A stretch of DNA of 28,328 bases, taken from positions 1 through 28,328 of the IMG/VR virus record IMGVR_UViG_3300025645_000351; one strand, 5' to 3'. Position numbers and translations under genes: made by a program. Each line of letters opens with the position of its first letter. The first letter of the stretch is position 1. Below the pieces are notes generated by a model. It was not told where the DNA came from. It worked only from the letters and a program-made list of their open reading frames with translations, and ran no database searches. Positions 1-14,571 of this stretch are shown piece after piece. The DNA comes from a virus.

Positions 1-87
1 TCTTTCCTCTTTTTTAACATAATGAGAGGGTACTTCTTCTTCTTTTGCTTCTTCTTGCACGGTAAACGTAGGTTTCGTGTCAGTCAT
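1..87 (-). CDS. Partial gene, unknown, acidic N-terminus (runs off left edge)
   Basis: Only the first 29 codons are in the window, beginning MTDTKPTFTVQEEAK and remaining open to base 1. An AGGAG Shine-Dalgarno (in AACAGGAGCATATAG) sits about 7 bases before the ATG. The start overlaps the end of the upstream 67-aa ORF by 8 bases, so the two are probably translationally coupled. The visible part is rich in Glu and Thr with no membrane segment and no domain I recognise. Its position after the lysis genes on the same strand would fit the start of a packaging or head gene, but that is a guess from typical circular podovirus maps. Confidence 0.7.
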   Translation of the reverse strand, partial: MTDTKPTFTVQEEAKEEEVPSHYVKKEER

Positions 88-283
88 CTATATGCTCCTG
101 TTTATCTAGCAGGCTCTGGAGTTCCTGTTTAATAAAATTAATGCCGTCTAATTCGCCCATTAGAGCTTGGTAGGTTTCCATACTTGAAACACCTTTATTC
201 TCCAAAACATCCAATATTTGCTGGCGGCGTTGTTTAATTAGCTTCAATATAAAGCTAGAAGTATCTATAGTATTTATGCCAAT
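80..283 (-). CDS. Small helical protein, apparent ATT start codon
   Basis: A 67-codon frame that is coding-like: helical, charged, with heptad-like leucines and the segments TYQALMGELDGINFIKQEL (residues 37-55) and SLLDKQEHIDD at the end. I recall similar small proteins preceding head or packaging genes in marine phages, but cannot name a function. No ATG, GTG or TTG opens the frame near its 5' end: the upstream in-frame stop is the TAG of the preceding gene (295-293), and the first ATG is only codon 35. A perfect AGGAGG lies 5 bases before ATT at 283-281, so ATT is the best start. The ORF shares frame with the upstream 93-aa gene, so amber readthrough is an alternative. It overlaps the next gene by 8 bases. 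Confidence 0.65.
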   Translation of the reverse strand: MGINTIDTSSFILKLIKQRRQQILDVLENKGVSSMETYQALMGELDGINFIKQELQSLLDKQEHIDD

Positions 284-288
284 TAGTA

Positions 289-294
289 CCTCCT
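289..294 (-). promoter_or_regulatory. Shine-Dalgarno AGGAGG that decides an ATT start
   Basis: The minus strand reads TAGGAGGTACTAATTGGC. AGGAGG overlaps the TAG stop of the 93-aa gene and stands 5 bases before ATT at 283-281. The only standard start at suitable spacing is TTG at 282-280, which meets TAA after two codons. The site therefore argues for initiation at ATT of the 67-aa ORF. Confidence 0.6.
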
Positions 295-574
295 ATGCAA
301 GATTTTGTAGAATTAAAGCTATAATATACCCAAACACAAATCCTGCAAGTATAAAAATACACGTTGTTTTACGAAACTTGTTCCAAACAAAAGAAACCGT
401 GTCTTTTTGCTCTCTTAAATACTTTTCTACATCATCTATTGCATCTAAAGTCTTTTCATCCAAATTAGTTTTATCTAAAACATATTCTTGCAAAATGCTT
501 TTGTCTTTTACAAAAACATCCCTGTCTTTCTTCTTAACCGTTTTTGCTTTCTTAACTGTTTTCTTAACAGCCAT
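293..574 (-). CDS. Small C-terminally membrane-anchored protein, unknown
   Basis: 93 residues. The N-terminus is strongly basic (MAVKKTVKKAKTVKKK), followed by a charged helical middle and one hydrophobic segment at about residues 70-89 (CIFILAGFVFGYIIALIL), giving a tail-anchored arrangement. The RBS AGGAGAG precedes the ATG. It follows the 3TM holin gene, so a lysis accessory role is possible, but no antiholin or spanin signature is visible. Its first five residues (MAVKK) match those of the 63-aa basic protein at 2484-2675, which may be convergence. It ends in TAG, directly followed in frame by the ATT-started ORF. Confidence 0.7.
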   Translation of the reverse strand: MAVKKTVKKAKTVKKKDRDVFVKDKSILQEYVLDKTNLDEKTLDAIDDVEKYLREQKDTVSFVWNKFRKTTCIFILAGFVFGYIIALILQNLA

Positions 575-589
575 TATACTCTCTCCTAT

Positions 590-970
590 TTATTTTTTAA
601 AAAACTTTGCTGCACTTCTTACACCGAAGCTTGCCGCTACGATAACGCCAAGGCTTGCAGTATACCAAGTCGGAGCTTTATCTAAAGCTTCAAACCCTTT
701 CATTACAATCTCAACACCCCTCTCTCCTGTGAAAGAAAGTATTAATGGTATCGACCAGAGTCCTAGTATCCATTCATCTTTCCAAGAGTCTTTTGAGGCT
801 TCAGCCATCGTTTGATCCCAGTCTATCTCGCCTGTTGCCATCTTTGTCTTACGTTTTTCGATAGCAACTTTCAATTCACCTGCTGCTTTTGTTTGTTCTA
901 CTTTATTTTGTAGGTAACTGGTTGCTATGCCACCGACTGCCGATACTATACTTCCAAAGATCATGTCCAA
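590..970 (-). CDS. Probable holin, 3TM gene-transfer-agent type
   Basis: 126 residues. The layout is a short N-terminal hydrophobic helix (about 4-20, Ala/Gly-rich), a charged linker with GEIDWDQTMAEASKDSWKDEW (about 46-66), and two hydrophobic segments (about 66-81 and 102-119), ending in KFFKK. The linker with the W-x-x-x-M-x-x-x-S-x-x-S-W-K-D pattern followed by membrane helices is what I recall for the GTA 3TM holin family of marine phages and gene transfer agents. Such proteins are thought to make the inner-membrane lesion that lets endolysin act. It overlaps the nuclease gene by 10 bases. The lysozyme lies 4 kb upstream on the same strand. The family call is from pattern memory, not a search. 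Confidence 0.65.
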   Translation of the reverse strand: MDMIFGSIVSAVGGIATSYLQNKVEQTKAAGELKVAIEKRKTKMATGEIDWDQTMAEASKDSWKDEWILGLWSIPLILSFTGERGVEIVMKGFEALDKAPTWYTASLGVIVAASFGVRSAAKFFKK

Positions 971-13518: not shown

Positions 13519-14571
13519 TTATCCTCTTGTTAAACCTAATCCACCAAGCCCCAACCCAAGAAGAGTTGCTGCTGGGCTAGGAGGGGCAGTGTACTGACTA
13601 ACTTCAGAAGAAGCTGTAATTGGAACACCACGTAATATTGAAGACAAGAACTGTAAGTTCTGCCTTGGGTAATCTCTTTGGTTGATAAAATCTTCGTAAG
13701 CTCTTTCAAGAGATTGTTGTTCTCGCATCCTTACAGACTCACCAACGCCTGCCATTGCTCTTGCTCTGCCTAAACCATACTCTTGTAATGCAGGATCAAG
13801 ACCAGCCGCAAGTTGAGCAGATTGCTGTGCCATTGCTGCTTCTTGTTCTTGTGCGGCAATACGTCTTGCTTGTTGTTCTGCGGCTCTTTGCTGTGCCTGT
13901 GAAAACATTTGCTGTGATAGGTTTGTTCTGAAACTTTGTTGTTGTTCAGCCCTACCCATAGCATCTTGAAATCCTGCTGCTAGATTCTGAGCTTCAAGAT
14001 CCTGTAAATTCTGATCTAGATCTTGCCTAGCAAGTCTATCGACTACAGCCCTTCTGGAGCCACCAAAAGCACCTGCGGATACAGCCTGAGAATCTCTTGC
14101 TGCTTGCCCTTCATTAAATCTATCTTGCGCTCTTCTCTGCTGAACATCAAGAACACCTTCTATATAAGGATTCATATAGGATTGGTACTGGCTTCTCGGA
14201 TCGTACATCTGAGCAATACCTGCTGTGTAAGGATCTTGATACCTACCCATTGTCATAGAAGGATCATAATACTCAGCTATACCTGCTCTAAAAGGATTAG
14301 AACCTTGTGCTTGATTAAGAAATGTTTGATAAGCAGTGTCAATTCCGGGTGCAGGAGCAGCAGATATATCTCTTGTTAACTGTTCTGACGCAAGCGTATC
14401 AGCAGCAGGACCTGACAGTCTTGCGCTTTCATAAGGGATATAATCCTCTAAGGATTGAGACTCCGTTCTTGATAATAGTCTTTCAAAATACGGCCTTGCA
14501 TACTCAGGTAAGTTACTCTGCGTAACTGTTGAGGTTGATTGCATAGGTCTAGAACTACCGCCACCACCCAT
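13519..14571 (-). CDS. Probable internal virion protein, gp14-like
   Basis: 350 residues, Ala/Gln/Arg-rich and mostly helical after residue 130. Three short repeats of PF/PY-x-AGIA-x-x-YDP type occur at about 92-140 (FRAGIAEYYDP, YTAGIAQMYDP, YIEGVLDVQQ). A conserved-looking SAGAFGGSRRAVVDRLA follows, then a Gln/Ala coiled coil (about 210-255). The C-terminus is Gly/Leu-rich (LLGLGLGGLGLTRG), possibly membrane-active. The SAGAFGGSRR block is familiar from phage internal or ejection proteins. Position after the gp13-like gene and before the giant protein matches T7 gp14, a pore-forming ejection protein. The Shine-Dalgarno AAGGAG is formed by the last Lys-Glu codons of the upstream gene. Confidence 0.7.
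   Translation of the reverse strand: MGGGGSSRPMQSTSTVTQSNLPEYARPYFERLLSRTESQSLEDYIPYESARLSGPAADTLASEQLTRDISAAPAPGIDTAYQTFLNQAQGSNPFRAGIAEYYDPSMTMGRYQDPYTAGIAQMYDPRSQYQSYMNPYIEGVLDVQQRRAQDRFNEGQAARDSQAVSAGAFGGSRRAVVDRLARQDLDQNLQDLEAQNLAAGFQDAMGRAEQQQSFRTNLSQQMFSQAQQRAAEQQARRIAAQEQEAAMAQQSAQLAAGLDPALQEYGLGRARAMAGVGESVRMREQQSLERAYEDFINQRDYPRQNLQFLSSILRGVPITASSEVSQYTAPPSPAATLLGLGLGGLGLTRG

What the first reader, a model, noticed from the sequence alone, without database searches (positions are those of the whole stretch)
80..295. ATT initiation, or amber readthrough, of a conserved-looking small ORF
Minus strand: the 93-aa gene ends in TAG at 295-293. In the same frame, three codons later, a 67-codon ORF begins at ATT, 5 bases after a perfect AGGAGG. 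No ATG/GTG/TTG opens this frame until codon 35, and the N-terminal part (IDTSSFILKLIKQRRQQIL) looks like real protein. Two readings: ATT initiation, as in infC, or a 164-aa product by TAG readthrough. TAG ends other genes here (nozzle, 122-aa protein), so wholesale amber reassignment is unlikely.
Basis: partly seen in the sequence, partly recalled or inferred. Interest (0 to 1): 0.55.

Follow-up and report, generated by a model that had tools for sequence, protein, structure and literature searches.

The report
Phage gene starting at AUU codon
A small helical protein gene just before the chaperonin (GroES) gene of an uncultured marine phage appears to lack any normal start codon and to begin at AUU behind a strong ribosome-binding site, a rare way of keeping expression low that is known from a few bacterial genes.

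Summary
The ORF is real and the observation largely holds. In 12 of 12 close IMG/VR contigs (13 rows with the window, 8 distinct) the AGGAGG and the in-frame ATT five bases later are unchanged, and no ATG/GTG/TTG stands at the N-terminus. One detail is wrong: TTG occurs at codons 13, 24 and 27; the one at codon 13 is TTA or CTG in most relatives. The protein belongs to a family encoded directly upstream of phage groES. Of 114 distinct sequences, 90 have ATG in the start region, 15 GTG/TTG, 8 (this clade) none, and one is frame-broken. TAG readthrough is disfavoured: L203-L205, with the same gene order, start the small gene at ATG in another frame, and L012 lacks the 93-aa gene. Best reading: initiation at a non-canonical AUH codon, most likely AUU (spacing 5). 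The main rival is the ATA two codons on (spacing 11), which aligns with the relatives' ATG. This is a new member of a known kind (infC, pcnB, cvfC1). Side finding: an 11-codon stretch near the gene's end carries a strongly conserved nucleotide motif that includes the groES ribosome-binding site.

The parts
80..283 (-). 67-codon ORF read from ATT (283-281) to TGA (82-80); two-helix protein of a family encoded upstream of phage groES
281..283 (-). ATT, proposed start codon; same in 13 of 13 rows (8 distinct)
289..294 (-). AGGAGG Shine-Dalgarno sequence, 5 nt before ATT; overlaps the TAG of the upstream gene
275..277 (-). ATA, rival start codon, aligned with ATG of most relatives; 11 nt after AGGAGG
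274..282 (-). out-of-frame TTG GCA TAA minigene; TTG is TTA in L012
245..247 (-). TTG at codon 13; TTA in L004-L011, CTG in L012; rejected as start
293..574 (-). upstream 93-aa gene with a hydrophobic C-terminal segment (by eye), ends in TAG
94..127 (-). nucleotide motif CAGGAACTC-N5-CCTGCTAGA-N-AAACAGGAGC, conserved at synonymous sites across the family; contains the groES SD (100-95)
1..87 (-). 5' end of the groES (Cpn10) gene, ATG 87-85, overlapping the ORF's 3' end; runs off the window

Best explanation
The ORF is a genuine gene, translated from its own initiation site and not by readthrough. In this phage clade the AUG that most relatives have is missing, and the ribosome is placed by a perfect AGGAGG on a near-cognate AUH codon, most likely AUU at 283-281. 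The strong SD at good spacing offsets the poor codon-anticodon match, so the gene is made at a low level, as shown for cvfC1 AUU in S. aureus. Because the SD overlaps the stop of the 93-aa gene, ribosomes finishing that gene may feed it by termination-reinitiation. Shown: conservation of frame, SD and ATT; absence of a canonical start at the N-terminus; homology and start codons of relatives. Inferred: that AUU rather than AUA is used, low yield, coupling, sensitivity to IF3.
For: AGGAGG and ATT in 13 of 13 rows, 8 distinct. Window genes whose SD match of 5 or more letters lies upstream of the start have spacings of 4-7; ATT has 5, with a 7-letter match (AGGAGGT), the joint longest among the starts scored, equal to TAAGGAG at 14571. 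Codons 4-15 change only synonymously. Of 114 distinct family sequences, 90 have ATG in the start region, 15 GTG/TTG, 8 no canonical start, 1 is frame-broken (L107). The clade without canonical start is one branch with 100/98 support; GTG needs 7 changes and TTG 5 on the same tree (65 columns, many unresolved forks), which fits repeated weakening of the start. Model of two helices, 3-31 and 36-67: a start at codon 13 or 35 would cut or remove the first. Precedents, read as passages: PMC13009471 (AUU of the 61-aa cvfC1 with a strong, extended, conserved SD; about 10% of the AUG yield); PMC5472188 (infC ATT; sigR GTC behind AGGAGGTG).
Against: The usual start position of the family is two codons downstream, where this clade has ATA (84 sequences have ATG at that offset; M1 of L203 aligns with this codon). 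Some relatives have long SD-to-start distances (L257 11, L277 10, L094 9), so ATA at 11 is not excluded. Conservation inside the clade rests mainly on one more diverged sequence (L012, 83% nt identity). No protein or ribosome data.
Confidence: 0.6

Rival explanations
1. Initiation at the AUA two codons downstream (277-275), at the place of the family's AUG, from the same SD at a stretched spacing of 11.
For: Aligns with ATG/GTG/TTG of relatives; SD spacings of 9-11 exist in L094, L277, L257; the boundary of protein-level selection lies near codon 4.
Against: Spacing 11 lies outside the 4-8 of window genes whose SD match (4 or more letters) lies upstream of the start; an ATT at spacing 5 would compete.
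Confidence: 0.25
2. Amber readthrough of the 93-aa gene gives a 164-aa fusion.
For: Same frame; TAG kept in 13 of 13 rows.
Against: TAG is part of the SD stretch, which can explain its conservation. L012 has in-frame stops 21 and 26 codons before the TAG and no 93-aa gene there. In L203-L205 the corresponding genes are joined by TAATG in different frames. Codons 0, 1 and 3 change non-synonymously. No tRNA was found in the window, which is a fragment; TAG ends 5 of 35 listed genes.
Confidence: 0.04
3. The out-of-frame UUG at 282-280 (spacing 6) starts a two-codon minigene UUG GCA UAA whose stop overlaps the AUA (AUAA), and ribosomes reinitiate at AUA.
For: Geometry; UUG in 12 of 13 rows.
Against: L012 has UUA there and an intact ORF.
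Confidence: 0.06
4. Start at UUG codon 13 or AUG codon 35, with conservation further upstream due to RNA signals.
For: Canonical codons; AUG35 is present in 13 of 13 rows.
Against: UUG13 lacks an SD match and is not kept. The residues before codon 35 form the first helix of the model and are conserved to relatives at about 50% identity.
Confidence: 0.05

Closest known systems
E. coli infC (AUU) and pcnB (AUU)
   Same: AUU start, low or regulated yield (infC: PMC5472188 passages; pcnB: seen only as a reference title in PMC13009471)
   Different: chromosomal; infC is autoregulated by its own product IF3; here a phage gene of unknown function whose start is not proven
S. aureus cvfC1 (AUU, 61 aa) and ccpN (AUA)
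   Same: AUU/AUA start with strong conserved SD; cvfC1 is also a short gene (PMC13009471 passages)
   Different: shown by ribosome profiling and reporters; cellular genes; no sign of homology was looked for
Streptomyces sigR (GTC)
   Same: non-canonical start behind a conserved AGGAGGTG (PMC5472188 passages)
   Different: different codon; tested with IF3 mutants
Pelagibacter phage HTVC027P gp54, phage 023Pt_psg01, phrog_32603
   Same: homologous small protein directly before groES
   Different: the two phage genes start with ATG at residue 4 of this alignment

Membership tests
AUU/AUH-initiated bacterial genes (infC, pcnB, cvfC1 type) | no AUG/GUG/UUG at the N-terminus of a conserved protein | tested here: met
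   8 of 8 distinct clade sequences
AUU/AUH-initiated bacterial genes (infC, pcnB, cvfC1 type) | strong SD at good spacing before the AUH codon, conserved | tested here: met
   AGGAGG, spacing 5, 13 of 13 rows
AUU/AUH-initiated bacterial genes (infC, pcnB, cvfC1 type) | the AUH codon at the homologous start position of relatives | tested here: inconclusive
   the ATT is two codons upstream; the ATA is at the homologous position
AUU/AUH-initiated bacterial genes (infC, pcnB, cvfC1 type) | initiation shown by peptide, toeprint or footprint; reduced yield against AUG; IF3 sensitivity | not testable with these tools
   no wet data
stop-codon readthrough genes | upstream gene and extension in one frame in relatives | tested here: not met
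   L012 and L203-L205; the same frame is seen in the other clade rows whose upstream frame was read
phrog_32603 / small gene before phage groES | profile match and groES next door | tested here: met
   E 1.3e-5; Cpn10 E 1.8e-11 for the next gene in L001; hhalign 97.4% to HTVC027P gp54

The most novel reading that the evidence does not exclude
The small gene is a translational governor of phage GroES: its weak start codon (AUU here, GUG/UUG in other clades) sets how many ribosomes run through its 3' end, where a strongly conserved RNA motif (CAGGAACTC-N5-CCTGCTAGA-N-AAACAGGAGC) offers the groES SD two exclusive pairings, so that translation of one gene meters the other across many marine phages.
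Probability: 0.2. Interest if true: 0.7.

Novelty: new member of a known kind. Interest (0 to 1): 0.45.

Why it matters
To my knowledge natural AUU starts are proved in only a few bacterial genes. A phage clade that keeps one, inside a family whose other members have ATG, GTG or TTG, is a natural series for measuring how initiation strength evolves. It is also a gene that callers limited to ATG/GTG/TTG would truncate or miss. Five searches of the held paper library listed 12 entries (10 different papers); I saw no natural phage gene with an AUU start in the titles, abstract starts or the passages that I opened (PMC13009471, PMC5472188, PMC2268962, PMC11040787, the last on an engineered AUU start). 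This says nothing about papers not held. The motif before groES, if functional, would be a control element of phage chaperonins shared by many marine phages.

Tried and rejected
Assembly error: very unlikely, 12 contigs from differently numbered datasets agree. Amber reassignment or suppressor tRNA: TAG ends 5 of 35 listed genes, and no tRNA was found in the window, a fragment. SD-sequestering 5' hairpin: predicted in the window, L002, L004 and L008 but not in L005, L006 and L012, dropped. RNA hairpin, pseudoknot or switch in the 3' motif: the pairings exist in about 95% of cells, but there is almost no covariation (one weak pair), and four folds of the tail gave z from -0.47 to 0.05; the motif is sequence conservation and its structure is unproven. 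Rfam: no match up to E 1 in window 1-700. Pfam and NCBIfam: no match for the small protein. Genome contigs: one relative, L198, with ATG. DNA pattern for the start region: 74 stretches, of which the 12 known contigs and no further family member by my filter. Last scan with the L012 protein: the same 12 contigs and two distant ones, L343 and L344, not read. The PHROG scan of distant relatives failed on wrong coordinates and was not repeated.

Limits of the counts: one search kept 80 of 142 relatives. The 114 sequences include these motif-found rows, so they serve for start codons, not for motif frequency. Rows with less than 240 nt before the anchor or not matching the regular expression were dropped there. 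In one search the regular expression missed L044, L058, L064, L065, L067 and L068 (6 of 99). The 'groES' row used a wrong coordinate (91 instead of 87) and is not used. In that call three rows give a spacing of -1, where the match touches the start (4820, 2500, 2041); these and rows without a match are left out of the stated ranges.

Full report
What is there. On the minus strand the 93-aa gene ends in TAG (295-293). The AG of that stop opens a perfect AGGAGG (294-289), and after TACTA comes ATT (283-281), the first codon of a 67-codon frame that ends in TGA (82-80) and overlaps the ATG (87-85) of a GroES gene (the gene is Cpn10 in relative L001, E 1.8e-11).

Is it coding and conserved? A protein scan of IMG/VR examined 41 stretches and gave 12 contigs with 86-100% identity. 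With the window these are 13 rows and 8 distinct sequences. All 13 keep TAG GAGG, ATT and the open frame. Over codons 2-68, 32 are invariant, 21 vary only synonymously and 14 non-synonymously (my count from the table; residue 2 is the ATT). The variable codons just upstream (-3, 0, 1) and codon 3 are non-synonymous; those from 4 to 15 (5, 9, 11, 14, 15) are all synonymous, so protein-level selection begins at about codon 4. The TTG at codon 13 of the ORF is TTA in L004-L011 and CTG in L012.

Family. Wider scans gave 29 and 142 (80 kept) relatives, and two named phages, HTVC027P and 023Pt_psg01. Starts were compared on the conserved Q of residue 54: of 114 distinct sequences 90 have an ATG in the start region (84 at residue 4), 8 GTG, 7 TTG, and 9 none. 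Eight of the nine are the window's clade; the ninth, L107, has its ATG in another frame and is probably an indel. A 65-column tree of 99 proteins puts the clade on one branch (100/98) and needs 7 changes for GTG and 5 for TTG (many unresolved forks). AlphaFold2 on an alignment of nine family members gives two helices, 3-31 and 36-67, mean pLDDT 86.

Readthrough. A scan with the 93-aa protein gave seven relatives, four of them clade contigs (the pattern search is not exhaustive). In the other three, L203-L205, the gene ends in TAA that overlaps the ATG of the next small gene (TAATG), so the two lie in different frames, and groES follows. For L203 that small gene is a true relative: hhalign 96.8%, its M1 facing residue 4 here. 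In L012 in-frame stops lie 21 and 26 codons before the TAG and the frame further up does not resemble the 93-aa protein by eye. A fusion is therefore not the general state, and conservation of TAG can be explained by the SD that contains its last two bases.

Which codon? For ATT: spacing 5 to AGGAGG; window genes with an SD match of 5 or more letters upstream of the start have spacings of 4-7. For ATA at 277-275: it stands where relatives have ATG, GTG or TTG, and L094, L277 and L257 show SD spacings of 9, 10 and 11. I put 0.6 on AUU and 0.25 on AUA. Both are AUH codons, so 'non-canonical initiation' is firmer (about 0.85) than the choice of codon. The out-of-frame TTG (282-280) could start a two-codon minigene whose TAA overlaps the ATA, but L012 has TTA there.

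How it may work. In S. aureus an AUU-started 61-aa gene with a strong, extended, conserved SD gives about 10% of the AUG yield (PMC13009471, passages). infC in E. coli uses ATT, and sigR in Streptomyces GTC behind AGGAGGTG; both are repressed by IF3 (PMC5472188, passages). The present site has the same design. The GTG/TTG starts elsewhere in the family suggest that low initiation of this gene is favoured. Overlap of the SD with the upstream stop makes reinitiation plausible (PMC2268962, passages on IF2, IF3 and SD in reinitiation). These steps are inference.

Side finding. A stretch of codons near the gene's end is constrained as nucleotides. Among 45 distinct tails, Q is CAG 43/45, E GAA 45/45, L CTC 43/45, the next conserved L CTG 40 of 43, Q CAG 45/45, whereas the Leu twelve codons before the first Q uses all six codons; CTC and CTG are 2.5% and 2.7% of Leu codons in 16 genes of the window. 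Of 28 distinct tails found without use of the motif, 22 have CAGGAACTC-N5-CCTG exactly; L014, L015, L100 and L111 have variants, and L084 and L087 lack it. An exact-pattern scan hit its limit at 120 stretches; of the 80 that I examined, 77 are this gene family by my reading, 3 (L211, L227, L238) are not, and 68 show a GroES-like signature within 420 nt. CAGG-N10-CCTGC is also seen in HTVC023P gp35 and L203-L205. The motif ends in the groES SD. CCTG could pair with the CAGG before it or with the CAGG of the SD, but there is almost no covariation and no excess stability. It may be an RNA control element, a protein-binding site or a DNA-level boundary; I cannot tell. A small gene of 62-67 codons precedes groES also in DSL-LC04, HTVC023P, CRP-901, Caulobacter phage RW and Planktothrix phage Pag-Yong1; homology is supported for DSL-LC04 (95%), not for HTVC023P gp35 (10%), and was not tested for the other three.

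Verdict. A real gene with a probable AUU (possibly AUA) start: a new phage member of a known, rare kind. Interest is moderate. The motif before groES deserves its own study.

Noticed in passing
window 127-94 (minus strand) and the same place in relatives among L028-L124 and L206-L285: Strongly conserved nucleotide motif near the end of the small gene, using otherwise rare Leu codons and ending in the groES SD; almost no covariation and no excess folding stability.
   Followed up: partly
L235, L243, L245, L246, L260, L274, L275: GTG/TTG starts of the family here are preceded by TAATG, with an out-of-frame ATG opening a short frame that overlaps the weak start; possible coupling.
   Followed up: no
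L057, L059-L063, L066, L283: Group in which the gene starts with TTG at residue 3, five bases after AAGGAG, also directly behind an upstream stop.
   Followed up: partly
L012 1-240: The 93-aa gene is absent, but the last 40 or so bases up to TAGGAGG still resemble those of L004 by eye.
   Followed up: partly
L326-L330 (DSL-LC04, HTVC023P, CRP-901, RW, Pag-Yong1): A protein of 62-67 aa is encoded directly before groES in all five named phages fetched.
   Followed up: partly
L107: Family member with its ATG out of frame relative to the rest of the gene: indel or decay.
   Followed up: no
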